NCBI GenBank assembly: GCA_947034885.2
Contig: OX344750.2
Coordinates: 12,580,053-12,644,052, forward strand
Source of the DNA: Thuidium tamariscinum
Lineage: Eukaryota; Streptophyta; Bryopsida; Hypnales; Thuidiaceae
DNA: 64,000 nt
Direction: 5' to 3'
Shown here: positions 1 to 57,625 of the stretch, in pieces
Numbering within the stretch: the stretch's first letter is position 1
Layout: the number at the start of each line of letters is the position of its first letter
Notes under the pieces: model-generated
The model's input: only the letters and a program-made list of their open reading frames with translations
The model's database searches: none
Told to the model about the DNA's origin: nothing
Position numbers and translations under genes: made by a program

Positions 1-13
1 AGCCATTGGAAAG

Positions 14-15105: not shown

Positions 15106-15113
15106 GTGATAAC
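15106..15113. repeat. 8-bp target-site duplication, left copy
   Basis: GTGATAAC, identical to 57618-57625. Eight base pairs is the usual duplication length for hAT elements. Confidence 0.9.
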
Positions 15114-15126
15114 CAGGGTTGTCATA
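15114..15126 (+). repeat. Left terminal inverted repeat of the giant hAT element
   Basis: CAGGGTTGTCATA matches the inverse of 57605-57617 over 13 of 13 bases. CAGGG is a common hAT terminus. Confidence 0.9.
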
Positions 15127-15276
15127 CCTGGCGGACGTCCGGTATGCCCGTCTGTCCGTCCGGGACGTCCGATAGAGCTCTCGCCCGTCCGGTAGAGTCA
15201 ACACATAGTTGACTTTTTGATAATGGAAAAATAGGCCACGTGGCTGCCACGTGGCTGCCATGTGGATTCCAGAACA

Positions 15277-15352
15277 TGCAGGGCGCGGACGTGATCGTCA
15301 GAGCGGGGACGCGATCGTCAGGGCGTGGACGCAATTGTCAGGGCACGGACGG
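15277..15352 (-). repeat. Left subterminal GTCCGCGCCCTGAC-type array
   Basis: About four units read on the minus strand as GTCCGCGCCCTG, GTCCCCGCTCTGAC, GTCCACGCCCTGAC and GTCCGTGCCCTGAC, spaced by 4-6 bases. The right-end array (57165-57506) reads on the plus strand, so the two are in mirrored orientation. Repeated subterminal motifs are binding sites for transposase in other hAT elements (for example Ac); that role here is inferred. Confidence 0.75.
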
Positions 15353-15369
15353 GATTTGGGACCACCTTA

Positions 15370-17450
15370 AAATTAATTAATATGCTTCTACATATTTCCT
15401 TTTTATATTCCATATTCCCACTTTCCTAGTCACTCCAACACTTTATATTTTTTTTAATGTTACATCATATCACTCTAATTAGTCTAATACCCAAACCATT
15501 TTCATATCCAAATTACTCCACCATTCCATTTTTTTTTAGGTGTGAAATTACATCATTCTAACATCCAAACCATTTTCATATCCAAATCACTACACCATTT
15601 TATTTTTTTAGGAGGTGTTAAATTACCTCACTATAACATGCAAACCATTTCCATATCCAAATCACTCCACCATTCCATATATTTTTTGGGTGTTAGATCA
15701 TATCACTCTAACACCTAAGCCATTTCTATATTCCAAAGCACTCTTCCATCCCTTATTTCTTTTAATGTTAGATCATATTACTCCTAAAATAAATTGGTAT
15801 GCTTTTCAAAAGCTTGGGTCACTTTACCTCCCCTTTTGGACATTGACTTTTGAAGCAGACTTCCATTCCAAGTCTCTGCGATTATTTTTATTGGCGGAAT
15901 CATTCCCTTTCCTATATCTTCGCATCATTACCAAAACTCTTCGATTTTAATTCAATGCCATTTGTCTAGTGTAGAATGATTTCTTTTCCCTATTTTATTT
16001 CTTGTGATTACCAAAATTGTTCCATTCCAACCAAAGGCCATTTATTTTTGGTTGATCATTAGCAAAACTCTTTCATCCGAACTCAATTCCATTTATTTTT
16101 TGTGGCATCCCAACTCTATCCCAACTCTATCCCAACTCAATGGTAATTTGTGTTGGTTGTTAGTTGAAATCACTTTGACTCCTTATTTTTTGTGGACTTA
16201 TCCTTCTTTCATTGAGTTTGCTTTTATCAACAACATTTTGTTAACATAAAGCTTAAACGGATTTTCAAAACCCAACAACATTTTATTTCCCTCCTTATTT
16301 TTGTTTATCATTCATATCACATTAACATCCAAACCATTCCAAGTTTTTTTAATGTTAGATCACATCACTGTAGCACCCAAACCATTTCCATATCCTTAAT
16401 CACTCCACCATTCCAAAAATTTTTTAAGTGTTAAATCATTTCACTCTAACACCCAAACAACTTTAATTTATTATTCCATCATTTCCTTCCAATTTCTTTT
16501 GCATCATAAGCAAAACTCTCCCATCCCAAGTCAATGCCATTTGTTTTTTGTTAAATCATTCCTTTTTCTATTTTTCTCGCCTCATTAATTAACAAAGCTT
16601 TTCTATTTTTTTCCTTCAATCCTAAAACTCTTTCATTCCAAATCATTGTCATTTTTTTGGATGAATCATTTCCTTTCCCTTTTTTTTGGCTTCATTCCTA
16701 GAACTCTCCCATCTGAATTGAATGCCATTTTGTATTTGTTCCATCATTTCGTTTCCTATGTTTTTTATTAATTAGCAAAGCTCTTCTTATCCCAACTCCA
16801 TGCCATTCTTTTTGGTTTAGGTCATTCTCTCTCTTATTTTTTTGGCTTCATTCCTAAAACTCTACCATCCCAACTCATAGTTTTTCTTTTAGTTTTTCTT
16901 GAATAATTCCATCTTCGTTTCTGTTTTGCTTCATTAATTAACAAGACTCTCCCATCCTAATTCAAAGCCATTTTTCTGTAATTCCATCATTCCCTTTCCT
17001 TTTGGGGGGCCTCCTTTCTAAAACCCTTCCATCCCAATTGAAAGCAAAATGTTCATTTTCTGTTCCATATTTTCTTTCCCTATTTTTTTGGCTTCATTCC
17101 TACAATTCTCCCATCCCAACTCATAGTTGTTGTTCTCTTTTTTGTTGAATCATTCCTTTTTCTTTTTTGTTTACCGTCATTAATTAGCAGGACCACTTTA
17201 TTCCAACTCATAGTTCCTCTTTATTTGTTGAATCATTCCCTTCCCTATTTTATTTTTGTAATATTTCCTAAAGTTCTTCCATCCCAAGTCAAAGCTATTA
17301 TTTTTTTTGTTCCATCTTTCCTTTTCCTTTTTTTGTTTTCTCTTCATTCCTAAAATTCTTCCATTCTACTTCAATGTCATTCATTTTTTTGTTGGATCAT
17401 TCATTTTCCCTTCTTTGGGGGGGCTTCATTAACTCCTAAAACATAGGCAT
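15370..17450 (+). repeat. Degenerate satellite-like array, about 75-bp unit
   Basis: Repeated phrases such as TTCATTCCTAAAACTC, CCATCCCAACTC, AATGCCATTT and AATCATTCCCTTTCC recur through 2 kb with strong drift. The reverse complement of the same unit makes up 24990-27080. ORFs crossing it (for example 15615-15950) are repeat translation and not genes. Confidence 0.8.
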
Positions 17451-17745
17451 AGTGAAAAAAATTAAGTGTATGCATTTTTATACCAAACTATTGCATCCAT
17501 AGTTTTCATTTACGTTTTATCATCAATTCATAGAAGTCATAAAAAATGCCATGAGGAAAGAACAATGAAAGGGCATATTAATATATTTTGGGATTTTGAG
17601 TATGGTACACAATTACACATCCGATTTAATATATATTCAAGCTGTTTGGCAATTGCCAAGTAGGTACATAGGCTCCTCTATGAGGATGATTTTCTTCTAT
17701 GCCTGAAATATATGCTAAACTACAAAAAGTATTAAAAACAAAATA

Positions 17746-19227
17746 CTATGTACGATAACAACAATCCGGCATCATCCAACAGTGGGGGGCCTTCTTCAAT
17801 TTGTCTAGAACATCTGGCACTATTGCCTTTTCACGCACATCTTCTTTTACGAGGTTTCCCAATTTGATCCTGAAATTCTGATACTGCTCTGGGTTTTTCG
17901 TTGTGAAGTATTTAGGGTCCCACTCTTCATTCCAAATTGCAGAAGCTATCCATCCCACCGCATATGCATCAGCTGCCATAGAATACAAATGCGTTTTTTG
18001 CATGGCCTCAATGGAGTTTGATGAACCCTGCTCTCCGTATACATAAAACAATTCTGGGGCCGCAAACCTTCGCTTTTTTTTCTCCTTCGCAAGGATCTCC
18101 ATACTCGGATAGCCATACCTTGATGGCTCCTTCTCCACAACTCGGCTAGAAAGTCCCCAATCACATATCCCTATGTACACCCTATTTCGTTCCCAAGGAT
18201 CAAAATGGAGCAAAACATTGGATGGAGATATGTTGTTGTGCATGTACTGCGCATCATGGCATTTCCCCACAATGACAAGTAATGACAATGCCAATTTCAC
18301 TCAATTTCTCCGATACGTTGCAACCCATGAAAGTTCCTCTTCCGTCAGCCCCGTAGAAATTTCACTCTCAATCTCATCCACATCCAGTGCTTCGCTCACT
18401 TTCGCACTGCATTTGGACAAGAAAGAAATTAGAGATCCTCCATTCCACCATAGTGTGTAGCCTTCCATTGTTTTAGGGTGGAGGTACGCAATTCAAATGA
18501 TGCCAGGATGATTCACTGGACACCCTCCTGCCTCATTGATCATTGCTTGGCGTTTCTCCTTTTCATTCTTAGTCTTCAAGCTCTTTCCAGCAAAAAATAT
18601 CCAACTAGGAATGCTCTCAAGTTTCGTAAAGATCACCTTCCTCACAGTCCCATACGACCCAATCACAATTTGTTCCGACATGGGGATGACTTTCACGGAA
18701 CTTTCTAGCCACTTGAATGTTCCACTCACGCAATGAGCCGTTATCGCTTCTTCAATTGTCACTTTCCATGGTACTTGCTTTTTTCTACGTGAAGAAGAAT
18801 ATCGTTGAGCAAACGTTTGAATCTCCTTCACTTTTGTAACCATCTCTCTGTCTTCCGTGTCCCAGTCGCTACCATCTTCTTTCTTACCCGTGTGATAACA
18901 CCAATTACACACTATATTGGTTGTCAAGGCGACCACTTGTTTATCCAGCCACTCTTGGTGCAACCAATAATCTGAGAAGTTGAATTCTTCTGATTCTTCA
19001 AACTTTGACTCCAGCTCCTTTCGCAGGTCCCTCGTCAGTTTGTGGTACCCTTCTTCGTTGAGCAACACATACTCCCTGTTCAACATATTTGTACTTCGAC
19101 GAGTGTAGAGTACCACAGCTATTTTTCTCCCTTCGACTATGAATTCATGTCCAGGTATTTGGGAATTTTGTTCTTTCTTGCGTTTTTTCTGGCCTGATGA
19201 GGAAGGATTTGATGAACCTGAGGCCAT
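17746..19227 (-). pseudogene. Protein-kinase-fold gene with degenerate catalytic loop (pseudokinase), two in-frame stops
   Basis: The frame runs from ATG at 19227 to a stop at 17746 (494 codons), interrupted by TGA at 18493-18495 and TGA at 18301-18303, both in the same frame. A basic N-terminus (QKKRKKE) and an unrecognised domain of about 170 residues precede the kinase fold. Kinase landmarks are present: glycine loop IGSYGTVRKV, the Lys strand FAGKSLK, HNNISPSNVLL for the catalytic loop, ICDWGLSS for DFG, and APEL for APE. The normal HRD...K is replaced by HNN...S, so the catalytic Asp and Lys are missing: a pseudokinase even if the stops were read through. It is divergent from the ORF at 19464, with about 240 bp between starts. 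It lies inside the giant transposon, flanked by inverted satellite arrays. Its role is unknown; it may be a captured host gene. Confidence 0.78.
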
Positions 19228-19463
19228 CAACGTGTTTGTACATGGAATTACTGTCTCACCGATGTCCTATTGTAAATTCCTACATAGTGTACAAACATAT
19301 TATAATATGTTTTATTGGGTAGCTTCAAGGTGACGTTATTCTTTGAGTAACTTCAAGGTGACGCTGTTCTATTGAGATGTACAACATCCATATAAGAACA
19401 CGATTTTGCCTTAGAGTCTCATTGGATTTCGTTGGTGAGTTTAGTTTTCACATTAGAATTAGA
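19228..19463. promoter_or_regulatory. Shared intergenic region between divergent cargo genes
   Basis: The kinase-like gene leaves leftwards and the unknown ORF rightwards from this 236-bp gap, suggesting a bidirectional promoter. It contains two copies of a phrase around AACTTCAAGGTGACG (near 19320-19365). No GTCCGCGCCCTGAC array is present here, unlike at the other two gene promoters of the element. Confidence 0.4.
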
Positions 19464-19922
19464 ATGTCGAACTGGAGGGTTTTTTCTGAGTCTCAAGATG
19501 AAGAGCCTCAACCGGAGGTTGAATTTGAACTTTCGTTGTCACAACTACCGGATCAACCTCTTCTGTTGCGAGATATTGTATTGCCGCGTGAGCATCCACG
19601 AGATGAAGCTGGGCCTTCTCGACTGCCGAAACAACCTCGTGTGAAGCAACGGTGGCACGGGAACCTTCAGCGAGATGCTCGAGCTTTGGTGATCTTATTG
19701 CAAGTTGGGTGTGTTGAGCCCGGAAATCGTGAAGTGACGTTTGAAGGATGTTTTGAAGGTCTAAACGACGAACAATACTTTGGTATGGTGAGGCTTATCG
19801 AAGGGAGTCGCGGTCACGAACGATGGTTAGAAGGACCGGTGAATCCTTTGACAAAGGCGGAACGTGCTGATTATGTCGCCACGACAATCAAACGCATCCT
19901 CAAGTTTCTGCAGATGGAGTGA
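19464..19922 (+). CDS. Unknown 152-residue cargo ORF
   Basis: An intact frame from ATG at 19464 (an upstream in-frame ATG is at 19377). The sequence around 19464 is a good start context, and the upstream part looks like leader sequence. The N-terminus begins MSNWRVFSESQDEE and is acidic. The middle has a basic Pro/Arg-rich stretch. The C-terminal half (from about residue 70) looks like a small globular alpha/beta domain with LVILLQVGCVEPGN. I recognise no family. The start resembles that of the gypsy gag at 60891 over about 21 bases (ATG.GAACTGGAGGGTTTTT), so an origin from a gag gene is possible. It is the only undamaged-looking ORF of the cargo. Confidence 0.55.
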   Translation: MSNWRVFSESQDEEPQPEVEFELSLSQLPDQPLLLRDIVLPREHPRDEAGPSRLPKQPRVKQRWHGNLQRDARALVILLQVGCVEPGNREVTFEGCFEGLNDEQYFGMVRLIEGSRGHERWLEGPVNPLTKAERADYVATTIKRILKFLQME

Positions 19923-21996
19923 AGCTTCGATTGGAACTCTAGTTTTTTACCTCTAGTAAACATTTATTGAATGTTAGTTCTTAATTTTATATTTTGAGTA
20001 TTTTATTTTAATCGCAATGTGTGATTAAATGTAGAATAAAGTTTTTATGATAGAAAAATTAGCTTGGGGTTTGATGATAAGGGAGAGTGTGAATGGGGAA
20101 ATGATTGGAATCTTAGGTGGGCTCTTGGTAGGGGTATGGGCTGATGTGCCTCACCCCCTCACTTATGATGGGGAGGAAATTAGGGAAAAGATGCTTAGTT
20201 GGTGTGTGGAGAGGGAGTTTTGTGTGTGTGTTTTGGGAAGTTTTGGGCCGAATTTCGGGTTGATGTAGCTCATTGAGCATTGAATCTTTGGAATTGAAAC
20301 TTTGGCAGCTGATTCCTTGTGATTAGACCTTTCCAAATTGTGCTTGCAAGTTGAATTTGGACTTGTGAATCAAAAGTTATAGAGTTTTGAAGTTGAGAGG
20401 ACCTAAGGCCTTCCATTGAGAAGAGCAGAGGCTTCTTCGAGCCATAACTTTTGTAGTATTTTTCATCTTGTCCTGAGATTTGGAGGGATTGTATATCATT
20501 GTAGTATCTTTCTAAGAAGTCATCATTCATCTGATTTGGAGTTTGGAGGAGAAAGTTATGAGGAGTTGAAGGTCTGGAGGAAAATTGAAGTTTGGAAGGA
20601 GAAAGGCCGTGACTTGAAACGACCACAACTTTGGGTGTGTTTCTCATATGTCTTTGAAACTTCTTGTGGAGTTAGTTTGTAGAATTTTCTATTCATAATG
20701 AGTTCATTCACTTCATTTGAACTCTTTTTGAAGAAGTTATAGAGTGTAGAAGATAGGAAGGAGTGTTGCCTTTGTAGTTTAGAAACCCAAGACTTTGTTC
20801 TTTAATAACTTTTGGACAGAGTCTTAGTTTCTCATTAAACTTTCTGAGATTGTGGATATTATTTTGTGGATTCTAAATTGCTATCACACTTGCAATTTGG
20901 ATTTGTAGTTCAAAAGTTATAGAAAAATATAGAGGCAGTAGTTGGTTGCCAAGGGATTTGAGGAACCGCTACTTTGCACTCTAATAACTTTTGGACAGTA
21001 GTTTAGATATAGTTGAGATTTGGAGGGTGTTTTCCTTATAAAGTTATCTTTTCAAAATGCTATTACATTAAGTATTTGGAGACTTGAACCATCTGTAGCA
21101 CTAGAAAGAAGGTCGCAGCTAGTAAGAGGAGAAGTTTTCTAGTGTTTTTTGAGGTTCTTTGAAGTTCTTTGGGGTTTTTGGAGTTCTTGGGGTTCTTTTG
21201 AAGACTTGAAGATTCGAAGGCCGTACATGCCGAGGACCTAGCCTTGTATTGTGGCTTGTGGCTCGTTTTCATTTCTGTTATTCCCAGCCAGTTTTAGAGG
21301 TTAGTTGAAAATTCAATTTCTGCATTATAAAACCGTTGCGAGCCGTGGTTATCCAGTAAGCGCTTCATTTTGTGTTTGTGGTGACGAAGTGGGGTTAATG
21401 GCCCACATGGTCGATCTTTTATGTTGTTCCCATTGATAAAAGGCGCTTCCTAATCATCGTGGGTTTGAAGTTTAGAGGCCCATCATTCGGACAGTCACTC
21501 GTGTTGGCCATCCCGTTTTACCCGTCCAAAGCCTTATTTCTTATCACCCAACTTCACCCTTGGCCCTATAGAGCCAGCCACAGGATAGGCCAACGAAAGA
21601 ACAAGTGAAGATTCAAGCAGAGATTCAAGTGAAGATCAAGAGAAGATTCGAGTTTTGAAGACTTACCCAACTTCACTCATCAACGTGCAGACAGACACCC
21701 CGCGTGTTCCCTAAGCGCGCTCCTCTCTACCCGACACCGACATCATCCAAGTCTACAAACATAGGACGTTTGTCCACCGATCCACTCCCTTCACCTGCCA
21801 TAATGGAAAAAAAAAGTTCCAATGGGCCTCCGTATCAATTCCGAAGCAAGAAAGTTTCAAAAAAATTCAAAAAAACCAGGTTTCATATGCAGGCCAAGCC
21901 CAGCACCCACCAAACTCACTCGCACAAGCCGTGGGAACGAACTAGCATGTGAGGTATAGGGCGCGGACTTGGCAATGGAATGAGGGTGGGGACTCG
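19923..21996. other. Non-coding stretch with degenerate internal repeats
   Basis: From about 20330 to 21020 a degenerate repeat recurs with phrases such as AAAAGTTATAGAG, AATAACTTTTGGACAG and GAGATTTGGAGGG. From 21120 to 21200 a GGTTCTTTGAAG-type repeat follows. From 21350 to 21990 the DNA is less AT-rich, with no gene recognised. It is the region upstream of the RING gene's promoter array. Confidence 0.5.
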
Positions 21997-22004
21997 CTTT
22001 ATAT

Positions 22005-22302
22005 AGTCCCCCCGCGCACGTCCCCGCCCCATCCCCATCGCGTTCCCGCCCCAACACGTAGAGTCCCCGCCCTGATACACGCGTCCCCGCCCTGACGGAG
22101 ACGTCCGCGCCTCGACAACGAAGGAGTCCCCGCCTTGACCCTGGCGTCTGTGCCCTGACAACGAAGGAGTCCCCGCCTTGACACTGGCGTCCGCACCCCG
22201 ACATCGATGGAGTCCCTGCCTTGACAGCGATGGCGTTTGCGCCCTGACGTCCCCGACTGCCCCTATATAAACCCGTCCTCGCCTCACTTGTCCCCGCCCT
22301 GC
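22005..22302 (+). repeat. GTCCCCGCCCTGAC-type array upstream of the RING gene
   Basis: About a dozen variants of the element's terminal motif (GTCCCCGCCCTGA, GTCCGCGCCTCGAC, GTCCCCGCCTTGAC and others) in plus orientation with short spacers such as ACGAAGGA and TGGC. The array leads directly into a TATA box and the RING gene start. Long minus-strand ORFs here (21857-22287) are repeat translation. Confidence 0.8.
22264..22271 (+). promoter_or_regulatory. TATA box of the RING gene
   Basis: TATATAAA immediately after the GC-rich array and 137 bp upstream of the ATG at 22401. The transposase gene has the same box in the same arrangement at 51128. Confidence 0.65.
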
Positions 22303-22400
22303 ATACTCTCAGCCTTCCACTTCTTCATTGAGTTGGTTGTGAGCGTTGTGCGGGGTCTTTTTGATTGCCACGTGGGAGGTTTTCACATTTTCCCGTGAAA

Positions 22401-24686
22401 ATGGCTACACCGACAAGACCAAGGAAGGAGGAACGAGACAAGACCCGACTACGACCAGGAAACAAACATCGTAAGTGGTTGCATGTTTTACGTAATCCCG
22501 CAAAGCTTGCATTCAAAGGGTGGGAAGACGTGCCTGACCCATGGACTTACAAAAACTGTGTCAATTACATCGAGTGGTGCCACATTGACAAGGTCTTCCC
22601 AGAAGAGCGACACAACTATCACCGACGCTTCCACAAGGCAAATTTAAAACATTGCATTGATGAGGAGTTCACAAATCGGTGCATCAAAGTGTACCAGGCG
22701 TTGTATGATGTCCCTATCGTCAAACGCAATGAAGTGCATCTCTTCATTGCACGAGGGGTACATGCGGAACTAAAGTTGAACAAGAGAATGGACTGGTCAA
22801 CTTTGAAGACAATGGGGGACAAAGTCAACATTCCTACACCAGCAAATGGATTCATTCCAAGGGGGATAAAAAGGTACCCGCAAGGTGGACTGGGTAAAAC
22901 AACTACACAAGTTGAAGCACCACCATTACATGACACTGAGGACTCTGCTACAGATAACGACTCGGATGGATCTCATGTGCCACATGCACTCAGCTATAGA
23001 ACAAATCTACGGCTTAAAAAGAGGAGGGCTGAGCGTGCAACTGAAGAGGGTGTACAAAAAAATGTTGTGGAGGGACAGGTGCCAGCTACTGACGAACCAA
23101 CAATAGGAATTGTTGATGTTACAGCTACTGCAGATTGAATTCAGAGTTTGAGGACTGAAGTGGAAGAGAGCAATGCGCATCTGCATTCTTTGTATGAAGA
23201 TGTTAATAAATTGAGGGATGAACTCAAAGAAAAGAACAATATTATAAGTGAACAACAACGTGAGATAGAGGCGCTGCGGCATGCTCTTGAAGCAGCCACA
23301 TTGGCCAATGATGGTCAGGATCCACGAGGGGGAGCGCAAGGGCCTCCAATCAATGATGAAATTCCAGTGCAACATGTTGAAGTTGGTGCAACACAGGGTA
23401 CTCAAGATGATGCACTGTCATTTGGAGAATTACCCACAAATGCAGGTCAAGCAATGCCAATTGACCAGAGCACTCAATTGACGGACGCGCTTGCAAACAA
23501 TTTGATATTGAAAAAACAATTGAAAGCGTTGATGGAGCAATATTACCAGTGGAAAATGGCATGCGTCTTTTCTGTTGACAGAACTCAGCAAATGGTGTCA
23601 GAATTTCAAAAAATCGACAACAATTATGGCGCACACAATCAAGAGAGGGTTTTTGGGTTGACATCGTAGGCCCTCGTGGATGATCATTTCAACATGGATG
23701 AAATGGTGACCAAAGACATTGGTGGTGGAACAACAATCATCGATTGGTCCAAACACCATTGGGATTTCAAGAATGAAGTTGGCTCTTCCCTCGACCAGAA
23801 CGGCAATCCACTATTATTATGGCCAAATCCTTCAAGCTTTGTGTATGATGGTACTACGTGTCCCATTTGTCTAAATCCATTTGGCCCTGAAGGTGGAATG
23901 CACCTAGGCACGTGCGAACACTTGTACCATCCATTTTGTTTGATTAGCTTGATGGTTGTTCGTCGACGGTGTTCCTTGTGCAAGGCTCCTTTCCATGAGC
24001 ACTTGTATGATTTGTTTGGATTAGTTTCATACATGCCACCACATTGGGAATATAATGCTGAAAATGCCCCTGATCATGCTCAGAAGTGGGAAACTGACTT
24101 GGTGTGGAGTTGGAAATTGAAGGTCCATTCCTTGGATAAACAAAACCTTTCTGCCGAATGGGGTTGGGAAAAAAATCCAGCTCAAATAGTGGAGGTGTGT
24201 CAATACTTGATTCCAATGAAGGACAAGTATAGCCAAGGACGACGGAATTTCTTCTATCAGTGCTTCAATGGGCATTGGGACGAGGTTTTTGAGAACTTTC
24301 AATTTGGACCTCATCCTAAACAGTGGTTTTGGAATAGGGATGGAGTTCGTATCACTAACGACGATGGGATTCGTATGGTGGACGACATTGACATGCTTGA
24401 CCCTACTGAACTAGTTCAACTAGAGGAGTCAGAGTGGCGAGAAACCTTTCGACATGAAGGGATGGATTTCTTGCTTGATCAGCATAGCCCTCGAACTCGC
24501 CAATGTCTTGAGAGCCTCAAACAATCACAGATCATGAGGGCTGTATTGGAGGAAGATGGACCAGCGCGGAGAACTCGATCCGCAATTCGTAGACTTCGTT
24601 TAGGCTCGGACGAAGACCTTCCCGTCATTGTAGGGACACATGACAACGAGGCTGGCCCAAGTGGCAGTGCAATGGACATAGACTAA
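22401..24686 (+). pseudogene. Long coiled-coil / RING-H2 protein gene with two in-frame stops
   Basis: The start ATG at 22401 sits in GTGAAAATGGCT. One frame of 762 codons runs to 24686, interrupted by TGA at 23136-23138 and TAG at 23667-23669; all three pieces share the frame. Piece 1 (245 residues) is basic, with a folded domain of unknown type and an acidic linker. Piece 2 holds a coiled coil (about 23150-23290). Piece 3 has a RING-H2 at residues about 487-530: CPICLNPF, then GTCEHLYHPFC and RRRCSLCKAPF, giving the eight C/H ligands of an E3 ubiquitin ligase. A conserved-looking Trp-rich domain follows, and an acidic C-terminus. RING-H2 proteins transfer ubiquitin from E2 to substrates; a role here in transposon control is speculation. 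Stop read-through is an alternative to decay. Confidence 0.78.
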
Positions 24687-32842: not shown

Positions 32843-32864
32843 CACTATAAGAAACCCATGTTTT

Positions 32865-38200: not shown

Positions 38201-38421
38201 TGTTAAGAATAGCATACTATCCTTATTACACTCTCTACTATAGTTATTTAGAGTTCTCTCTAGTTATAAAGACATATAGGGATAAGATGAGAATACTTTA
38301 AACCAATAGGAGAGAAGAACTACTCTTCTTCTCTCCTCTACATATGTTTCTACTTCCTTCTAAAGTTTACTCTTTCCTTCTTGCATGTTGAGTGTTCTTA
38401 TTTCGTCTCATATTCTCAACA
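38201..38421 (+). repeat. 3' LTR of the truncated copia element
   Basis: Begins TGTTAAGAATAG directly after the purine tract CGAGCGAAGAGGAG and ends ATTCTCAACA (221 bp). TG...CA termini and position after the RNase H frame fit a 3' LTR. No matching 5' copy is present. Confidence 0.8.
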
Positions 38422-44348: not shown

Positions 44349-44524
44349 GTCGTACTTCTGTAGGAATTTAATCTTGCCTGGGACTTCTGTGAGACTTGAA
44401 AATTGCAAGCACAGAGTCAGTGTTGTAAGATCAAGTATTTTATAGATAATGATTCTTGTGTGGCTCGTCTTTGTAGCCTGTTCTGCGTTCACGTGGGGGT
44501 TCTAAAGCCTTTTTCTTTCTTCAG

Positions 44525-46533: not shown

Positions 46534-48446
46534 GTATGTACCTCATCTCCTATTGAAATTTGATGTTGAAAGAGTAAACAGGTGTGGATAATATAGGTGT
46601 TGGTATCCATTTATAGGTTCTCTTTTGAGACGAGTTGATAGCTAACATATCTACCTCACTGTGCGGGAGCTTCCTCATGCATAGAACGTGGATGTGGCTA
46701 CCGAAGTACTAGTATGTAATATAATGTGTGACTGCTTCCAATTGACTGCAAGTCCACAATTGTCTGTGAAGCACCTCATGACAACTAAGTTCAAAGTGCA
46801 CTGTTGAAGGAACAAACTTTTTGATGAGCATCAAATTAATAGCTTCTATAGTGGAATACACAATTGCTCAGTGCAGAGTTACTGCATCATTTTGAACCAC
46901 TTAGATATTTCATGAAGTGTGATATAGGCTAGGGGGAGGTGCAATGGTTGTCAAGCATGTTCGATGTCCAATTGATTCACCAAGAACAGCATTGCGCAGG
47001 TACTGTGAGCAATGAGTAGCATATTCATTTCTTGAAGAATGAAGATTTCTATACATTTTGAACGACTTTCAAGTCGCAGAGTTTCATAGTTTGGAGCTTC
47101 GTTTCCACACAATTGGTACCTTAGTACCAGAGCTCACATAAGTTAGTGCATGCTTTGCATCCCTGTTCATATAACATGTGTACGATGTAGGCTACCAAAC
47201 TTTGCCTTCATTTTCTAAACGTGATTGTGAGTAGCATTATTAGGTCACCTGACCGTAAAACCAATATAGCTCAATTGAAGAGATACCTATTATAAAAGAC
47301 GTTAATTAGTACATGATGGATAATTAAGTTCCATGCTAGCCTTTCTACCTCAGAAACATATGTGCTATAAGGGAGAAACACCCATTCCCGTCCCTGTACC
47401 TTGCAGTGGAGTGTAGAGTCACTCAAATATGTCCCTAGAGTGTGATTAATGTCTTTGACACATGTGTGAAAATAATTTGTTGACACAGGTGAAGGACACT
47501 TAAGAAAATCTGGTTGGCTCAGGGCTGATTTTCGCAGGGTTCAGTTTTGGGTGCACCTACTGGACACTTTTAGTGGTCTAGACACCCATCACTTCAAAAA
47601 AACATAGAAATTACATACAATGCCCAAAAAATTTATTTCTTTTTTTGAATATTCATAATTTTCACTCGCTAATACTAGAAAAATATCAATTTTAGGAAAA
47701 TCTCCCTCCAACTATGCTGAATTCCTTAAATGGACGGTTTTGGGTGTTTCCACTGTAGTGCAGAATTAGCATATGTTGTGTGTATAGTAGTATGTACATG
47801 CTCGTAGCATGAAATATAGAAACAAATGCTTCATAGCATACTATGTAAAGCATGCAGATGTCAGAATATGCTAATGCACAAGTGTTGTGATGTAATAAAA
47901 TGTTTATGAAGAAGTTGGCCAACATGTTATTCAATGTATAATCTCATCTATGCCTTGTTTATTATGATACGCTTGAGGATGTCAATAATGATGAAATAAC
48001 ATGGAAAATTCAATGTATAATCTCATCAATGCCTTGTTCATTATAATATGCTTGAGGATGTCAATGACAATGCAATAACATGCGGGGAATAAAACATATA
48101 GCACACGTCTATGAGGTATCGATGATTTTCAAGAACATGACCCAAGGAAAAGCAAATGGTTTTTTTAATGTTCAAGTCCTCATTACACGTGTTCAACAAT
48201 GTACAATAGCACTAGGAAAATATTGAATGACAAGGTCAATCTATTTTTGTGGTTGTTGACACTCACATCTTCCAGAATGCACTTGATAGGATCAGCTAAT
48301 TATTCAAAACATTACTCTAATGCGCTACTCATTGTGCAACACATGTACCCTATTGTCAAACTGTACATGGCGAGTTCCATATTCTCTTTGTGACCATGTT
48401 AAGAAGAATGTGCAAAAAATTCTCCACTCTACTGCTATGTTCTATG
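46534..48446. other. Non-coding DNA, partly from the captured gene's 3' flank
   Basis: No gene was found. A 79-bp tandem duplication (about 47931-48088, CAATGTATAATCTCATC) is present. The first several hundred bases are less AT-rich and may be 3' sequence of the RECQSIM donor. Confidence 0.45.
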
Positions 48447-49169
48447 GGGTAGTTGCAAGAAAGGCCTCTCACTTTTTGTCTCGTTTGTGTTTTTCCTTTG
48501 GGAGTACTGTTTAATTAGAAAAATAATTTTTAAAAAATGTGAAAAATATGTTTAGTGCATATACCTTTACGAAGAAGGTCCCATGTGAAGGAAAAGTGTA
48601 GGAAAATTTTCTAACTAGGTGAACTAGAAAAGTGCAAATTCTCAGAAAAAGGGGTACTTTCACATTTTAATTTGTAAAAAATAGGAAAATCAATTTTTAA
48701 AAAAACTAAAAATTGTCAATTTGGGAAGGATTGATGATGATGAGATTTCACCAAAAGAATTATTTTGAAACCATTTTTGATGTTTAGAATTGTATGCGCA
48801 AGGGGCCTCTATTTGCATCAATGTAGAGGACATAAAATAATGTTTTTAAGAAATACTTTTGGTCAACTCATAAATCTTTAGGGCATAAATAGACCACACA
48901 AATTTCAAGTCTACATCATTAATTTTGGATACTCCACAGTACTAAAACCCCCTAAACTACAAAGTGTGACAAATTAGGTAAATTAAAATTTAATTAGAAA
49001 ATGTTTTTTGGAAATTTTTGAAAAATGAGGAATTTCTTTAATATCAAGTTGGACATCTTCAATAAAAATTTCAAGTACATTGGATTAATACCCCAAAAAT
49101 TATAACCAATGGCACAAAAGTCACTTCCATTGTGATGCCAAAAAGGACAGCCCTTTCTTGCAATCACCC
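48447..49169. mobile_element. MITE-like element, family 1, copy C (723 bp)
   Basis: Ends GGGTAGTTGCAAGAAAGG and CCTTTCTTGCAATCACCC, flanked by TATG on both sides (48443-48446 and 49170-49173). Strong similarity to copy A in the same orientation. It lies inside the giant transposon. Confidence 0.8.
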
Positions 49170-49773
49170 TATGGCACACATAGAACTCCACACTATTTCG
49201 TGCAGAATCAGTGGCACTGTTGCAAATGTTGTCTCATTAATCTTGAAAACATAATTAAGTATGAATGTACCAAACACTGAGCAAGCCTCTAAAAACATGC
49301 AATCAAATATAGCGCCTCATTACTTCATCATGGAATTTGTCATTCTAAACACTGAAAATTTGTTGATATTGATAGCCTCAGTGTTACTGTAAACGTCACA
49401 GACCATGTCTCTCCATTTTTCAGAACGTTGAGTTCAACATGAACTGCAATGTTCAACTGAATTGAACGGAAACAACCTCATTCGCCACATCAGCGTCGGT
49501 CTGGTCAGAAAAAAAAAAATTACTTGGGGTTGATATGGCGCTGATGTGGTGCTGATGTGGCTTGTTTTTTTACCCCTTTTTACCCTCAAAATTGTCGTGA
49601 TTTCTGTGATGTTCCTCGCTGAACGCAACATGTTTTTCCTAATTTTGTTGTGTTTTTCCCTTGTCTTTTTTGACGGATTTACCTAGACATTCACAATATA
49701 CATGCCTGATGTTGCAATTCACATCCACCTACGTCTGAGGACGTGTCATAGAAAACGAGGCTTTCTTATAGTA

Positions 49774-50568: not shown

Positions 50569-51112
50569 ACGAGGACGTCCGCGCCCTGAAGTCCGCGCCC
50601 TGACTTCGAGTTCGCGCCCTGAAGTCCACGCCCTGTCTTCCTGTCCCCACCCAGACCGCTAGGGATTCAGGTGTGCATTTTGAACGTTGTCAAAGTTCAC
50701 CGCCCTCAAGTCCACGCCCTGACTCCCCGTCTCCGCCCTGAAGTCCCCGCTCTGACTTCCCGTCCTTGCCCTGACGCCAAGGATTCAGGTGTGCATTTTG
50801 GAGGTTGTCAAAGTTCACAAATTCTCCGCCCTAAAGTCCGCGCCCTGACTTCCCGTCCCCGCCCTCAAGTCCGTGCCCTGTCTTCTCGTCCCCGCCCAGA
50901 CCACTAGGGATTCAGGTGTGCATTTTGAACGTTGTCAAAGTTCACCGCCCTCAAGTCCGCGCCCTGACTTCCCGTCCCCGCCGTGAAGTCCGCGCCCTGT
51001 TCTCCCGTCCCCGCCCTCAAGTCCGCGCCCTGACGGCAGGGATTCAGGTGTGCATAGACTTTGGGACTGAAGTCCGTGCCCTGTTGACAAGGACAACGGT
51101 GAAGTCCGCGCC
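50569..51112 (+). repeat. GTCCGCGCCCTGAC-type array upstream of the hAT transposase gene
   Basis: More than twenty units with spacers, in plus orientation, arranged in larger repeats. The phrase GATTCAGGTGTGCATTTT recurs at about 50664, 50784 and 50909. ORFs 50447-51171 (Arg/Pro-rich) are repeat translation. The array directly precedes a TATA box and the transposase. Confidence 0.82.
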
Positions 51113-51127
51113 CCTACCTTCCCCAAG

Positions 51128-51388: not shown

Positions 51389-54300
51389 ATGGCAAGTCAG
51401 AGGAGGCAGACCAAGGACTGGGAACCGTGGCTGAACTTCACAAAGAATGGGACTAAAGTGACTTGTGTTTTTTGTACTGGGACCTTCAGTTACAAACGTG
51501 AGCGTGCTTTTGCACATTTCGGATATGGCGCGAAATCGGAGAGGTCAATTTGTCAAAATATGCCTCATGAAGTGCGACATAGGTTTGCCAATTGTACAGG
51601 TTTTGTCCCACTACGAGTGGATGCCGGGAACATGTGTGAAGGAGAACCAATTCAAAGTGGACCGACTAGAGCAACTCCGCTTGCAAGTTCAAGCGAAGCC
51701 ACTGAAAATGAGGTGACGGATGGGGTCACTGGTGGGAGAGTAGAAGAACGGGCAAACGTTCCTGAAGGAAATGAAATTCTACAAACGTCCAATAGTCTTG
51801 CAGGTTCAAATTCTACAAGATCGGGATCATTACGTCAGCAACGCATGGCGGACGCATTCAACATTGCAAAGAGGAAGGAGTTGGATGACAAGTGGGCAAG
51901 TTTTTTCTATGAAGCAAATGTGCCATTTAATATGGCAAGGCATCCAGCCTTCATTGAGGCTGTGAGGGCAACCTCAGTGGCGAGGTTTGAATATAGTCCA
52001 CCTTCTTACCATCAGTTCAGGACTAATTTAATTGAACCGAGGAGGTTGCAAATCGAGAAGAAGATTGAAGAGAAGGTTGGTTTTGCTGTCAAGTACTACG
52101 GGGTGACGATATGCACCGATGGTTGGGATGATGTCAATCGGAGGCCCCTCATGAATGTGATGATGTCATGCCCCGCAGGTGATGTATTTTTGGGGTCAAT
52201 TGACACTACCTCACAAAAGAAAACCATGCGCTATATAGCAGACCAAATGAAAGTTTACATTGAGAAGGTGGGTTCCAAATATGTGACACAAGTTTGCACA
52301 GATAATGTAGCAAACATGCTTGGGGCATTGAGAGACATTACTCTAACCTATCCGCATATATTTGCGCAAGGCTGCATGGCACATGCATTGGATTTGATGT
52401 TGGAAGATTGGGCCAAGATTCAGGAATTTTCCGATTTAATTGACAGGGCAAGAAGATTGTGCCAATACATTCGAAACCATCATGCGACCATATCGGTTTT
52501 TCGTGAGTTGAGTCCAAACCTACAACGTAGTGCCTAACGAAACTTGCTTTGCTTGTAATTTCCTCATGTTACAGCGAGTGGTGAAACTCAAAGGAGTCTT
52601 GGAGCGGTTGAATAACCACCCCCGTGTTATAAATTACTATGATACCCTACGAAACGAACAGAATGGACCACAGGCAGCTACCGCTTCACGTAATGTCAGA
52701 AGAACCATTGAAGATGTGGCCTTTTGGCAACGATGTGTGAATTACGTGTACATGACTGAAGACGTATTGAAGGCTTTGCGTGTGTTTGATGGATGAGAAC
52801 CAGCCATGGGTCGGGCGTGGCTCGTGATGCATAACTTGCGAGGACACGTGTATTCTTTGAGAGAACCACCTTTGAGCTTACGAGATGACATAGCAGTCAC
52901 TTTGGAGAGATCTTTCAATGAAAGATGGGACATGATTTTTGAAGATACGCACTACGCCGCGGCCCTTTTGAATCCATACCTCTTGGATAACGTGGCGCTC
53001 AGGGTAGACGGAACAGCGCTACGTGCATTGTACAGAGTCATCCACAAAATGGAAGATGTAGTGGGTGTCACTTTTGATGATGTGTTGGCGGAATTAACTC
53101 AATTTGAGGAGGGTAGTGGACCGTACAGTATAGCTGAGACACCCAACATCCGTGTGATACAAATGCTTCCCCACCAATGGTGGTATAGGGTTGGAGATCG
53201 GGCTCTTTCAAAAATTGCCGTGCGTATTCTATCCCTCACGTGTTCAGCCAGCTCTTGTGAAAAGAATTGGAGTATGTATTCTTTTGTTCACAATAGGGTC
53301 CGAAATCGATTAGCCCCCGCGAAGGCAAAGTCATTGGTATATATTTATACTAATAGCCGTGTACTTCAGGAAAGACCAGGAGCCGATCCAGTTCGTTGGT
53401 ATGATGCAAATATGTACTCGGAGGATTCTGATCCAGATGCCCTTGGTCCGATCCCTTTGAATGAACACAATCGGGAATTTGACGCAATGCAAGCAGAGGA
53501 AGAAGAAGAGGTTGGTGTGGAAGCCAATGAAGCACCTCAAGAGTATCCGGCGAACCCAGATCTTTGGAGGCGAGGTGCCGATCACCTCGAGGAAGCGAGA
53601 AACTACTATGGAGATGTTGACGATGGAGAGGAAGAACCCGTTGGTGGTCGTTGGGGTCCTTGGGTATCCAATCCTCGTCGCAGTCCTTCACCTCCTCTTC
53701 CTCAAAATGAAGGGGTCGTAGAAGTCCAAGCTTTGTCATCTTCTTCAGAGGCCGCCAATCCAAATGACGATGACGTGGATGATGGTATCTCCCATAACAA
53801 CAATGACAATGATGACGACCTCCCTCCAGGAAATGGCGGTGGAAATGGAAATGGAAGCAATAATGGAAGTGGCGGTGAAAATGAAAATCGCGGCGGAAAT
53901 GGAAATGGTGGTGGAAATGGAAATGGTGGCGGAAACATGGGGAGGACTGCAAATCCAAATTGTGGAGGATCTTCTCACAATCAAGATGGCAATACAGGGC
54001 CTACAAGAATGGGGGCATCAGTTCATAGCAATACAGTTGTTGAACGACACCATGACAGAAACGTTAGAAATGCAAGAATGGCACGCCCTATTGGAAGGAA
54101 TCAATCGGCAAGTAATGTGAGAAGGCGTTTTGATCCAGAGCATGTAGACTACAATGATGTTTTTGCATTTATTGACGCACCAGAAGACCTTGCGCGTGAA
54201 CCCACTCTAGTTGGTTCTGACCGAACTAGCCAAGCGCCACATTCCCTAGACCCATCTTCACCAGCAACTTCCAATGCCATCCAAAGACCTTTTGAAGAAG

Positions 54301-54995
54301 GATTAGGCTCTATGAGAAATGTTGATATGACTCCTCAAAACATTTCTCATGGTACTGTTGGTGGTAGACCACCTACGGCACCTCGGCCCTCCATTCATCA
54401 TGAAGTGGGTCAATATCAACAAGGTCGTGGAAGGATGGGAGGCCTTGGAAGGACGGGAGGCCGTGGAAGGGCTGGAGGCCGAGGAGGGATTGGAGGCCGT
54501 GGAGGGACTAGAGGTCGTGGAGGAAGAGAAGGTCCACATATTGGAGAAGCATCATCGTCAAGGCCTACTCATCGTCCACTCCTTGGAATAGGGGCAAGAG
54601 ACTCAAATAGGGTGGTAGAACCGTTCTTGGATACATACGTACTAGGACCTAGTAGGTCAACCCCGGCATTTGTTGTTTCTCGAATTTCAAGTGGGCCCAC
54701 TATAAATTCTGATGCAGAAGACCCCAACGCACTGCGACATAAGAGGTTCAAGCGCAAACGTAGTCAAGGTCAAACTATTGTAGAGCTTCGAAATGAAAAC
54801 TCAGAGATTGAGGGACATTGGACCACAGATAGTGGTGAAGCAGAAGATGAATATGACAGCAACGAAGATGCCAATGACGAGGATGATCCAAACTGCGATG
54901 AGGCACCACAGGATGATGATGTTGTTGTTCAAGATGCTAATGTAGTGGATCCTAGTGCCCAAGAAGTTCGTAGGTCGAGTCGTTTCAATAACTGA
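51389..54995 (+). pseudogene. hAT-superfamily transposase with a long low-complexity C-terminal tail; one frameshift and one stop
   Basis: The ATG at 51389 lies in ACAATGG and opens a frame of about 1,202 codons. Domains in order: BED-type zinc finger (CVFC at residues 26-29, His/Cys further on); DUF659-like catalytic start with CTDGWDD (Asp about 244) and CTDNVANM (Asp about 305); then GCMAHALDLM. The hAT dimerisation region follows near residues 590-655 (SLTCSASSCEKNWS and NRVRNRL). After that come about 530 residues of tail: acidic, Asn/Gly-rich (53830-53940), RGG-like (54420-54530) and acidic again. Breaks: a +1/-2 frameshift at about 52524-52529, before VVPNETCFACNF, and TGA at 52794-52796. 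hAT transposases excise elements with terminal inverted repeats and make 8-bp duplications, which fits the ends at 15114 and 57617. It is driven from the array/TATA promoter. Confidence 0.88.
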
Positions 54996-55396
54996 GTTGC
55001 ACCAATGGTAGATCTCGTGTCTTTAAGAGTTGAAGATAATTGTAGCAATTAAAAGAAAGATGGATGAGAAGCCAAAGGAATGTCTTAGATAACCGATGAG
55101 AAAGTGGGCATATTTTGGAAGTATAGATTCATTGTATTGTTATTGTACTTTGCAAATTGCAATGCATGAATTTTATAAATACTTTTGGTTATCATAAATA
55201 TTGAAGCCTACTAATATGTCTATAATGTTTTTGTATTTGACATTTTGATGTGCATGTTGGAAACATTGGTGAGTGCAATCATGTAATATATTTTGTAGGC
55301 TAATTCTATTTAATATGAGAGGCACTTTGACTTCAATGATGAATTGGGTTTGATAGTTGAATTTAATTTCAAGGTTTGTGATGTGGCTATTTTATT
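54996..55396. other. 3' flank of the transposase gene
   Basis: AT-rich, probably including the 3' untranslated region; no further coding sequence. Confidence 0.5.
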
Positions 55397-56818
55397 TTGT
55401 ACAATGGGGTACCAATAAAAAAAAGTCTTTTTCGAATTCGCAGTGAGAATTTTTTTGGTATGGCCAACTTTGAAAGCCTCCCGAGAGCTCAAAAAGTAGT
55501 GTTTAACCACAAAATTTTTACTACAGCATAACCTTGAAGTTAATTATATGTATGAAAAATTTCAAGGCCAAAAGATTTAGGAAAGAAAAGTTATTCAAAA
55601 TCTACCAAGATGGGTAGTAGTGAGAAACATTTCACTACTTTCAACTTTGACACCTTTTTAAGGAGTAAGGATTGAGTCTTGGTTCTTTTGTCGTGAAATT
55701 TTTGTCATGGAATAATCTCTATGTTCTTAATATGTTTTCGAACTATTTCAAGGTAAAAAAAGGTTTGGTGAAGAAGATATTTGAAATCTCTCAACATGTG
55801 TAGTTCTCTGAAACTTTTGACAATTACCAATTTTGACACCCTACCAAGGGCTAAAAAATAAGTTTCTTACCATGAATTTTTTTTGGTGAAGTCATCTCTA
55901 TATTCATAATATATGCTACAAGTTTCAAGTTAAAATGAACTACCCAAAAAAAGATATACAAAATCTGACAAGATGTGTGGTTATGAGAATTTTTTTACTA
56001 TTGCCAACCGTTTGACACCCTCCCAAGGGCTGAAAATTTGTCTATTTAACATGGAATTATTTGAATAAAATCAACTTTATGTTGATGTTCCAAATTTCAA
56101 GTTCAAAACACATACCCCAAAAAAGATATTCAAAATCTCTCAACATGTGTAGTTGTGAGGTTGAGTTTCTACATTCGTGACAAACTTGGCTCCACAAAAT
56201 AATACTATACTAAGGACTCAAGAACTTAATCTCATAACCACACATGTTATGAGATTTTGTATATCTTTTTTTTGGTAATTCATTTTAACTTGAAATTTCT
56301 AGCATATATTATGAACATAGAGATAAATGCAGCCAAAAAGAATTCATGGTAAGAAACCAATTTTTTAGCCCTTGGTAGGGTGTCAAAATTGGTAATTGTC
56401 AAAAGTTTCAAAGAACTACACATGTTGAGAGATTTCAAATATCTTCTTCATCAAACCTTTTTTTACCTTGAAATTTTTTATACATATTAAGAACATAGAG
56501 ATTATTCCATGACAAAAATTTCACGACAAAAGAACCAAGACTCAATCCTTACTCCTTAAAAAGGTGTCAAAGTTGAAAGTAGTGAAATGTTTCTCACCAC
56601 TACCAATCTTGATAGATTTTGAATAACTTTTCTTTCCTAAATCTTTTGGCCTTGAAATTTGTCATACATATAACTAACTTCAAGGTTAAGCTGTGGTAAA
56701 AATTTTGTGGTTAAATACTACTTTTTGAGCTCTCGGGAGGCTTTCAAAGTTGGCCATACCAAAAAAATTCTCACTATGAATTTGAAAAAGACTTTTTTTA
56801 TTGGTACCCCATTGTACA
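55397..56818. repeat. Long inverted repeat with arms of about 0.6 kb
   Basis: GTACAATGGGGTACCAATAA at 55398 is mirrored as TTATTGGTACCCCATTGTAC at 56798-56817. The complementarity continues inward to about 55990 and 56236, with few mismatches. Each arm is built of degenerate units of roughly 170-180 bp (phrases such as TTTGACACCCT.CCAAGGGCT). About 245 bp lie between the arms. Transcription would give a long hairpin RNA. It sits between the transposase gene and the right end of the giant element. Confidence 0.85.
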
Positions 56819-57164
56819 AAATAAAATAACCAATTGAAAATTTTGCATGCTAAGCCTTATTACTACTTTTACTTTCCAAGGTTATTTCAAATAATTTTGA
56901 TTGATTTTTCTATTTGTACTCATTTACATTCATTTTTTGCACCAAAAATTATAACAATTAGAAAATTGGTACAAAACAAACTATAATTTCTCATGGTGAT
57001 ATAGAATTAAGAGTTTGAATTAGAATAAATTTTAGATTGTTGTTTGAACACTACCCATACTCAAAAGGCTAAAATTAGTTCACATAAGAAGTTTGACCAC
57101 TTCACAATTGACAAAGTCCTTAAGGGGTTACGGACCTTCTACCCTATAGAACCCATAACTCACT
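56819..57164. other. AT-rich non-coding DNA
   Basis: Nothing recognised. Confidence 0.5.
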
Positions 57165-57506
57165 AACCGTCCGCGCCCTGACCCTTATGTTGAGGTCCGC
57201 GCCCTAACACTAATGGTGAAGTCCGCACCCTACCTATACGCGTCCGCGCCCCGACGTACACGCTGAAGTCCGCGCCCTACTTGTTCGAGTCCACGCCCTG
57301 ACGCTGACGGTGAAGTCCGCGCCCTACCTATACGCGTCCGCGCCCTGACGCACACGCTGAGGTCCGCGCCCTACTTGTTCGAGTCCGCGCCTTGACGCTG
57401 ATGGTGAAGTCCGCGCCCTACCTGTACGCGTCCGCGCCCTGACGGTGACACGATGAAGTCCGCGCCCTGACGTTGACGGAGACATCCGCGCCCTGGATCT
57501 CGCTTT
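57165..57506 (+). repeat. Right subterminal GTCCGCGCCCTGAC-type array
   Basis: About fifteen units in plus orientation (GTCCGCGCCCTGACGC, GTCCGCGCCCTACC and variants) with regular spacers such as TATACGC and GGTGAA. It mirrors the left array. The right terminal repeat follows 100 bp later. Confidence 0.85.
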
Positions 57507-57604
57507 CTAAGCTGACGTGTCAACCCAAAAAAATCCCACTACTTTGAAAAATGGAGCCGTTCGGTCCGTCCGTCCGGGACGTCCAGTGACCCTGACTCGT
57601 CCGT

Positions 57605-57617
57605 TATGACAACCCTG
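57605..57617 (-). repeat. Right terminal inverted repeat of the giant hAT element
   Basis: TATGACAACCCTG, the exact inverse of 15114-15126. Confidence 0.9.
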
Positions 57618-57625
57618 GTGATAAC
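57618..57625. repeat. 8-bp target-site duplication, right copy
   Basis: GTGATAAC, identical to 15106-15113. Confidence 0.9.

What the first reader, a model, noticed from the sequence alone, without database searches (positions are those of the whole stretch)
15106..57625. A 42.5-kb hAT transposon defined by perfect ends and a perfect 8-bp duplication
CAGGGTTGTCATA at 15114 and its exact inverse ending at 57617 are bordered by identical GTGATAAC octamers. Inside is a hAT transposase gene of the superfamily that makes 8-bp duplications. Plant hAT elements are mostly a few kilobases; this one has several cargo genes, which makes it comparable in concept with giant cargo-carrying transposons of other kingdoms.
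Basis: partly seen in the sequence, partly recalled or inferred. Interest (0 to 1): 0.92.

Follow-up and report, generated by a model that had tools for sequence, protein, structure and literature searches.

The report
Giant gene-carrying plant hAT transposons
The 42.5-kb block is a real hAT jumping gene whose own part is about 20 kb, doubled by two other insertions; it belongs to a many-copy family, most checked members of which carry a kinase gene and a RING-finger gene, an unusually large and gene-rich design for this superfamily.

Summary
Observation confirmed: perfect 13-bp inverted ends (15114, 57617) between identical GTGATAAC octamers; 0 of 100 shuffles give such a pair. In the window's own 363-Mb genome at least 40 left-end and 40 right-end relatives scored. 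Among the 30+30 with fetched flanks, 15 left/right pairs formed, and 15 of 15 have identical octamers, at 11.0-62.9 kb.

42.5 kb is not the native size. Two complete relatives (19.1, 20.7 kb) lack the same two blocks: 2.5 kb at 19261-21734 and 20.0 kb at 29732-49773. The larger starts CACTA, is flanked by TAA and holds host-gene fragments: probably a nested CACTA element. The core is about 20 kb.

Its own cargo is a kinase gene and a divergent RING-finger gene, both in 13 of 15 elements. A motif, GTCCGCGCCCTGA, stands in arrays at both ends, between those genes and before the transposase. A second family (about 38.8 kb between ends, octamers not matching) repeats the design with another motif. 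The window copy's three genes are all broken. What the cargo does is inferred.

The parts
15106..15113 (.). Left target-site duplication GTGATAAC
15114..15126 (+). Left terminal inverted repeat CAGGGTTGTCATA
   Evidence: at least 40 scored left-end relatives in the own genome
15279..15355 (-). Left subterminal array of GTCCGCGCCCTGA-like motifs (4 within 2 mismatches, reverse orientation)
15455..17430 (.). Pyrimidine-rich tandem repeats (75-80 bp units), inverted relative to 24995-27077; core (whole in the C7 copy, shorter in C11)
17746..19230 (-). Kinase-like cargo gene, broken here by two in-frame TGA stops; Pfam Pkinase match below its cut-off here, above it in a close relative
19261..21734 (.). 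About 2.5-kb nested insertion (TG...CA-like ends, CCGA to CACCGA duplicated), absent from both complete relatives; holds ORF 19377-19922
21960..22290 (+). Motif array between kinase and RING genes, before a TATATAA box
22365..24686 (+). RING-finger cargo gene (one frame, broken here by two stops; Pfam RING matches slightly below cut-off)
24995..27077 (.). Purine-rich repeats, inverted counterpart of 15455-17430; core
27576..28412 (+). Third motif array with a 436-bp tandem unit, next to a diverged copy of the transposase upstream region; no gene seen after it
29732..49773 (.). 20.0-kb nested CACTA-like element (begins CACTAGTAGGAGCC, ends TTCTTATAGTA, TAA on both sides), absent from both complete relatives
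40321..45256 (+). Host-gene fragments inside the nested block: Tic22 (40321-40833, 41438-41632), M3 oligopeptidase-like (43277-43456), RecQ-type helicase (44477-45256)
50575..51120 (+). Motif array before the TATATAAA box of the transposase gene
51389..54995 (+). hAT transposase gene, broken here by a frame shift near 52528 and a stop at 52794-52796
55384..56832 (.). Palindrome with arms of about 606 bp; core, also in the C11 and C7 copies (C7 has about 0.7 kb more in its middle)
57169..57495 (+). Right subterminal motif array, inverted relative to the left one
57605..57617 (-). Right terminal inverted repeat
57618..57625 (.). Right target-site duplication GTGATAAC

Best explanation
The block is one decayed copy of a giant hAT family with a native length of about 20 kb. 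Shown: the checked elements share 13-bp inverted ends and 8-bp target duplications; 13 of 15 hold a divergent kinase/RING gene pair; the three elements read in full (window, C11, C7) also hold the hAT transposase gene, and the window and C11 copies have arrays of a GC-rich 13-mer at both ends and before the genes. The window copy differs from C11 and C7 by a CACTA-like element and a 2.5-kb insertion. Inferred: the transposase cuts and pastes the whole element through the inverted ends; its N-terminal zinc finger binds the array motif at the ends to bring them together, and the same motif before the genes ties expression of transposase, kinase and RING protein to transposase level. Also inferred: kinase and RING protein are accessory proteins of the element (for instance against host silencing, or adjusting transposase amount), not chance passengers.
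For: Ends and duplication beyond chance. 15 of 15 testable pairs have identical octamers. The complete relatives align to the window as 15114-19262, 21735-29731 and 49773-57617, mostly at 96-97% (repeat tracts 84-93%). Kinase within 12 kb inside 29 of 40 left ends, opposite strand in 29 of 29. Both cargo genes in 13 of 15 elements in the same arrangement; 39 of 40 family-1 kinase rows have a divergent RING gene within 60 kb, 38 within 10 kb. 63 of 63 motif copies (up to 2 mismatches) are inside the element, none in 21.5 kb outside; with up to 3 mismatches 69 inside and 4 outside; same five clusters in C11. Second family: kinase at 32-34%, RING at about 43% identity, a hAT transposase with an open 833-codon frame, and its own motif GGGGCGACCGCG in arrays before each of five long genes and near both ends. 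The two best Foldseek matches of the transposase model are Hermes. 11 of 26 full-length kinase rows at 90% identity or more have no stop.
Against: Among 11 stop-free kinase copies (chosen for being stop-free) the ratio of mean dN to mean dS is 0.56 and variable sites fall evenly on codon positions (37, 39, 40), so recent copies drift almost freely. Two of 15 elements (11.0 and 62.9 kb) show neither cargo gene among the scored hits, and 11 of 40 left ends have no scored kinase within 12 kb. One array (27.6-28.4 kb) and, in family 2, one cluster (21.75-22.35 kb of the stretch) have no gene seen after them. The family-2 copy's octamers beside its ends differ (CCTTCCAT, GCACAGTC), so its 38.8 kb is not TSD-confirmed. 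The genome-wide transposase search did not complete, so linkage of transposase is shown only in copies read in full. C11 lacks about 0.7 kb of the left repeat tract and C7 has about 0.7 kb more in the palindrome. No binding, expression or mobility data.
Confidence: 0.85

Rival explanations
1. A single 42.5-kb cargo transposon in which everything between the ends, including the Tic22, peptidase and RecQ fragments, is hAT cargo.
For: Outer ends and duplication are perfect; other TSD-confirmed members reach 34.9, 35.8 and 62.9 kb, so large versions exist and may have moved at that size; those were not read.
Against: Two complete relatives lack exactly 19261-21734 and 29732-49773, with short duplications at each junction and CACTA-type ends on the larger block.
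Confidence: 0.08
2. Kinase and RING genes are passengers: host genes captured once by an ancestor and carried along, with no role in the element.
For: dN/dS 0.56 and even codon-position variability among recent copies; 15 of 26 full-length kinase rows have stops.
Against: The pair recurs in a second, deeply diverged family with a hAT transposase and its own promoter motif arrays; six relatives in the protein collection match 97-100% of the kinase at 59-82% identity.
Confidence: 0.25
3. A macrotransposon: two hAT copies in direct orientation whose outer ends moved the DNA between them, as known for maize Ac (28-kb case in passages of PMC9910405).
For: The transposase upstream region appears twice, near 27.3 and 50.3 kb, at 74% identity.
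Against: Both copies of that region sit inside one 19.1-kb and one 20.7-kb relative, so the duplication is native.
Confidence: 0.02
4. Assembly artefact joining unrelated copies.
For: The element is repetitive.
Against: Identical octamers at 15 of 15 pairs across the genome and colinear relatives are not expected from misjoins.
Confidence: 0.01

Closest known systems
hAT superfamily (Ac/Ds, Hermes; DUF659-type plant hAT transposases)
   Same: 8-bp duplications, short CAGGG ends, DUF659 and hAT dimerisation domains, Hermes-like fold; motif arrays near the ends, comparable to the subterminal repeats bound by the BED finger in Hermes (passages of PMC10368747).
   Different: About 20 kb with a conserved kinase/RING pair, and the end motif also stands in arrays before genes. 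Typical hATs are a few kb with one gene (recalled).
Ac macrotransposons / composite insertions of maize
   Same: Large DNA moved by hAT ends (28 kb; passages of PMC9910405).
   Different: Those are formed from several element ends plus host DNA; here one colinear element recurs at many sites.
Pack-TYPE elements (Pack-CACTA, Pack-hAT)
   Same: The nested 29732-49773 block carries host-gene fragments, as Pack-TYPE elements capture coding DNA (start of the abstract of PMC8903248 in a listing).
   Different: The hAT's own kinase and RING genes are multi-copy genes, many with open frames, not fragments.
Starship giant transposons of fungi; ToxhAT
   Same: Giant cargo-carrying elements; ToxhAT is given as 14 kb (abstract starts in a listing; that ToxhAT is hAT-like is recalled from its name).
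   Different: Starships use a different recombinase (recalled); here a hAT transposase, inverted ends and 8-bp duplications, in what looks like a plant.

Membership tests
hAT superfamily | 8-bp target-site duplication | tested here: met
   15 of 15 pairs identical
hAT superfamily | Short terminal inverted repeats | tested here: met
   CAGGGTTGTCATA at both ends of the window copy and, with 0-2 changes, at the 60 fetched ends
hAT superfamily | Transposase with hAT dimerisation domain (and DUF659) | tested here: met
   PF04937 5.6e-36, PF05699 1e-6, both above cut-off
hAT superfamily | Hermes-like fold | tested here: met
   Foldseek ranks 1-2 are Hermes (2.5e-6, 1.3e-4), but the model is of low confidence (pLDDT 60.8) and TM about 0.25
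hAT superfamily | N-terminal BED zinc finger | tested here: inconclusive
   C-x2-C ... H ... C pattern by eye in the alignment, no Pfam BED match
hAT superfamily | DDE catalytic triad | not tested
   Conserved acidic residues are visible but the triad was not assigned
CACTA superfamily (block 29732-49773) | Inverted ends CACTA...TAGTG | tested here: inconclusive
   Left end CACTAGTAGGAGCC; right end reads TAGTA, last base differs
CACTA superfamily (block 29732-49773) | 3-bp target-site duplication | tested here: met
   TAA on both sides, single in the C11 relative without the block
CACTA superfamily (block 29732-49773) | tnp2-type transposase | tested here: inconclusive
   None among the ORFs of the block that were scanned; not every frame was scanned
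Maize-type macrotransposon | Two separate elements flanking carried host DNA | tested here: not met
   Relatives of 19.1 and 20.7 kb are colinear single elements
Starship | Tyrosine-recombinase captain gene | not tested
   No such domain among the ORFs scanned with Pfam, but it was not sought as such

The most novel reading that the evidence does not exclude
Plants (probably mosses) harbour a class of giant hAT elements of about 20-40 kb that carry a regulon: transposase, kinase and RING gene stand behind arrays of the family's own end motif, so that transposase binding sets both transposition and cargo expression. Kinase and RING (joined in the second family by an SRA-domain gene) act as a paired accessory system, perhaps against DNA-methylation silencing, that has stayed together while the families diverged to about 33-43% protein identity.
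Probability: 0.35. Interest if true: 0.87.

Novelty: new variant of a known kind. Interest (0 to 1): 0.76.

Why it matters
Cut-and-paste hAT transposons are usually thought of as small (recalled). A multi-copy family in which 8 of 15 TSD-confirmed members measure 17-21 kb, larger ones reach 63 kb, and 13 of 15 share a two-gene cargo shows that hAT ends can carry gene sets in what looks like a plant genome. Because end motif and promoter motif are the same, a regulatory model becomes testable: bind transposase to the arrays and look at cargo expression and transposition. Stop-free kinase frames, and three copies of the second family's kinase under 1% apart, suggest fairly recent activity.

Tried and rejected
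Macrotransposon of two half elements: formed after seeing the duplicated upstream region, rejected when two complete relatives carried both copies. Intron in the transposase: rejected, the stretch is coding in relatives. Native 42.5-kb size: rejected. ORF 19377-19922 as cargo: rejected, it lies in the 2.5-kb insertion. Host gene split by the element: not supported.

Led nowhere: viral contigs and genome contigs gave no relatives; Rfam gave no match at its gathering scores; sequence searches of solved structures gave no transposase or kinase relative; NCBIfam gave nothing useful for the core genes, one weak match of the kinase piece far below its cut-off; the RING-protein model was too poor to use (mean pLDDT 43.3). 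The VIA-align rows for the transposase model were mostly retroviral integrases, with some other proteins, over residues of about 258-355; Hermes is not among the 50 rows shown. Papers: the listings showed me no description of a giant plant hAT with kinase and RING genes, and one search returned none; (a named moss genome) failed and was not repeated. 'Not in print' is only as good as those seven searches.

Rows dropped: one search made 20 pairs from 40+40 ends; only the 30+30 with fetched flanks were TSD-tested (15 pairs). TSD columns printed for minus-strand pairs were taken from the wrong end and are superseded. One search used 48 of 89 kinase rows; one search used 40 (family 1) and 27 (family 2) of the 89 kinase rows and 43 and 29 of the 121 RING rows, leaving out fragments and weaker subfamilies. 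Genome searches scored 40 of 180, 40 of 155, 87 of 629 and 120 of 728 candidates, so counts are lower bounds.
Full report
Check of the observation. A search of the window for any perfect 13-bp inverted pair with identical 8-bp flanks finds this pair and one trivial case inside a palindrome; none of 100 shuffled windows has one. The interior holds a hAT transposase gene.

Other copies. The window lies in a 363,211,507-base genome of 19 contigs, unnamed here. Tic22, TTTAGGG-like stretches and a DUF659 transposase fit a land plant; that it is a moss is my guess and comes from no call. The left 247 bases have at least 40 scored relatives and the right 238 bases likewise (40 of 180 and 40 of 155 candidates scored). 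I paired each left end with the nearest right end on the same strand among the 30+30 with fetched flanks. Fifteen pairs formed, and all 15 have identical octamers: 10,991; 16,952; 18,078; 19,111; 19,723; 19,880; 20,640; 20,669; 20,693; 23,831; 29,823; 34,941; 35,782; 42,504 (the window); 62,924 bp. A chance match of two octamers is about 1 in 65,000, so this is a family of real insertions with a usual length near 20 kb (8 of 15 between 17 and 21 kb). Fifteen left and 15 right ends of the 30+30 stayed without a partner in that set.

What is native and what is nested. I read two complete relatives. Copy C11 (19,111 bp) and copy C7 (20,693 bp) align to the window as three colinear pieces, 15114-19262, 21735-29731 and 49773-57617, mostly at 96-97%, lower in the repeat tracts. 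They differ also in repeat content: C11 lacks about 0.7 kb near 15.8-16.3 kb, C7 has about 0.7 kb more in the palindrome. Missing from both are 19261-21734 and 29732-49773. The first has TG and CA at its ends and a CCGA to CACCGA duplication. The second starts CACTAGTAGGAGCC and ends TTCTTATAGTA with TAA on each side; C11 shows the site without it. It is probably a CACTA element of 20,042 bp. In it lie exon-like pieces of Tic22 (5.7e-19 and 1.1e-8), of an M3 oligopeptidase (2.4e-4 to neurolysin; no Pfam match) and of a RecQ helicase (4.8e-9, 4.9e-13; Pfam DEAD below cut-off), a truncated copia piece and a small inverted-end element. What remains is a core of about 19,990 bp.

The core. From left to right: inverted end; short motif array; pyrimidine-rich repeats; kinase gene on the minus strand; motif array; RING-finger gene on the plus strand; purine-rich repeats that mirror the first; a motif array without a visible gene; a 172-bp repeat tract; the transposase behind a motif array and a TATA box; a palindrome; a motif array; inverted end. 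In C11 and C7 the kinase and RING frames stand back to back about 0.6 kb apart, in C11 with the array between them (arrays of C7 were not counted); in the window the 2.5-kb insertion has parted them. The 13-mer GTCCGCGCCCTGA with up to two mismatches occurs 63 times, all inside the element, in five clusters, with opposite orientation at the two ends (one hit near 21.96 kb, beside the second cluster, is on the other strand). With three mismatches there are 69 inside, 68 of them in the clusters, and 4 in 21,480 bases outside. C11 has the same five clusters.

State of this copy. The transposase has a frame shift and a stop, the kinase two stops, the RING gene two stops. The C11 copy is broken too. 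Other copies are better kept: of 26 full-length kinase rows at 90% identity or more, 11 have no stop. Relatives of all three proteins occur in the public protein collection: 42 for the transposase piece, 20 for the RING piece, 50 for the kinase. The Pfam matches of the window's kinase and RING pieces are below the curated cut-offs; a close kinase relative is above it, the two RING relatives scanned are not, so 'RING' rests on the near-cut-off match and the cysteine/histidine pattern.

Are the kinase and RING genes part of the element? In the genome, 29 of 40 left ends have a kinase within 12 kb inside, all 29 on the opposite strand; 11 have none among the rows used. Thirteen of the 15 TSD-defined elements hold both genes in the same arrangement; the 10,991-bp and 62,924-bp ones hold neither among the scored hits. 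Of 40 family-1 kinase rows 39 have a divergent RING gene within 60 kb and 38 within 10 kb. So the pair is a standing part of the family. Selection among recent copies is weak: for 11 stop-free kinases (55 pairs) mean dN 0.0160, mean dS 0.0285, ratio 0.56, pairwise ratios 0.22-2.29, variable sites 37, 39 and 40 by codon position. That sample was chosen for being stop-free.

A second family. The kinase search also gave 27 rows at 32-34% identity, mostly in a 529-codon frame; three of them, fetched, differ from one another by under 1%. Of these 27, 23 have a same-strand RING relative upstream within 60 kb and 19 within 20 kb, mostly near 11.6 kb. I read one, C9 from 22,568,001. It has a CAGGGTTTTCT end at position 1408 of the stretch and an inverted CAGGGTTTTCT end at 40170, 38,763 bp apart; the octamers beside them differ, so the length is not confirmed. 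Inside are a RING gene (with one stop), two genes related to the N-terminal part of the RING gene product, an SRA-domain frame (PF02182, 2.9e-35), the kinase, and a hAT transposase with an open 833-codon frame, 61% identical over 477 residues to a relative. A different motif, GGGGCGACCGCG, stands in arrays before each of the five long genes and near both ends; one further cluster has no such gene after it. There are 65 copies in the stretch of about 43.5 kb and none in its first 1,400 bases, outside the left end. A tnp2 frame lies beside that end.

Mechanism. Shown: insertion with 8-bp duplications, shared ends, shared cargo, motif arrays in the copies read. From known biology: hAT transposases cut at the inverted ends (recalled), and in Hermes the BED finger binds subterminal repeats (passages of PMC10368747; the same passages call a role of the more interior repeats unlikely). 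Inferred: the array motif is this family's binding site; having it before the genes couples cargo and transposase expression to transposase binding; kinase and RING protein help the element, with anti-silencing as one possibility. The last step rests on conservation of the pair alone and is the weakest.

Verdict. The finding is real but differently built than proposed: a giant hAT family of about 20 kb, one copy of which has been doubled by nested insertions, and a related second family of the same design. It is a new variant of a known kind.

Noticed in passing
window 29732-49773: A 20-kb CACTA-like element with fragments of at least three plant genes (Tic22, M3 oligopeptidase, RecQ), a copia piece and a small inverted-end element; a large Pack-CACTA candidate in its own right.
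   Followed up: partly
L080-L084 (C9:22568001-22611500): Second giant hAT family: open 833-codon transposase and 529-codon kinase frames, RING and SRA genes, own motif GGGGCGACCGCG; about 38.8 kb between CAGGGTTTTCT ends whose octamers differ.
   Followed up: partly
own genome: A further RING subfamily at 40-41% identity with many copies, often with an 829-codon open frame; not read.
   Followed up: no
L081:3167-3646 and 4332-4733: Two similar frames inside the second family, the first with an SAD/SRA domain (methyl-cytosine-binding type, recalled).
   Followed up: partly
C9:106673-169596: A 62.9-kb pair with identical octamers ATTGTAGT but neither kinase nor RING among the scored hits.
   Followed up: no
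window 10-7013: Copia element between 220-bp LTRs that are 99% identical.
   Followed up: no
window 9424-10156, 12338-13070, 48447-49169, 59086-59388: A family of about 0.7-kb elements with GGGT...ACCC-type inverted ends (the copy at 59 kb partial).
   Followed up: partly
window 14543-14944: DUF7748 domain in two same-frame pieces parted by a stop, just left of the insertion.
   Followed up: partly
window 27329-27636 and 50345-50635: Two diverged copies (74%) of the transposase upstream region inside the core; the first has no gene after it.
   Followed up: partly
window 61382-63286: Long frame with DUF4100 (PF13352, 1.7e-11), perhaps part of a retroelement.
   Followed up: no
protein P0072: A relative of the element's kinase that a source names as a Bacilli MAG protein; likely mis-binned plant DNA.
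   Followed up: no
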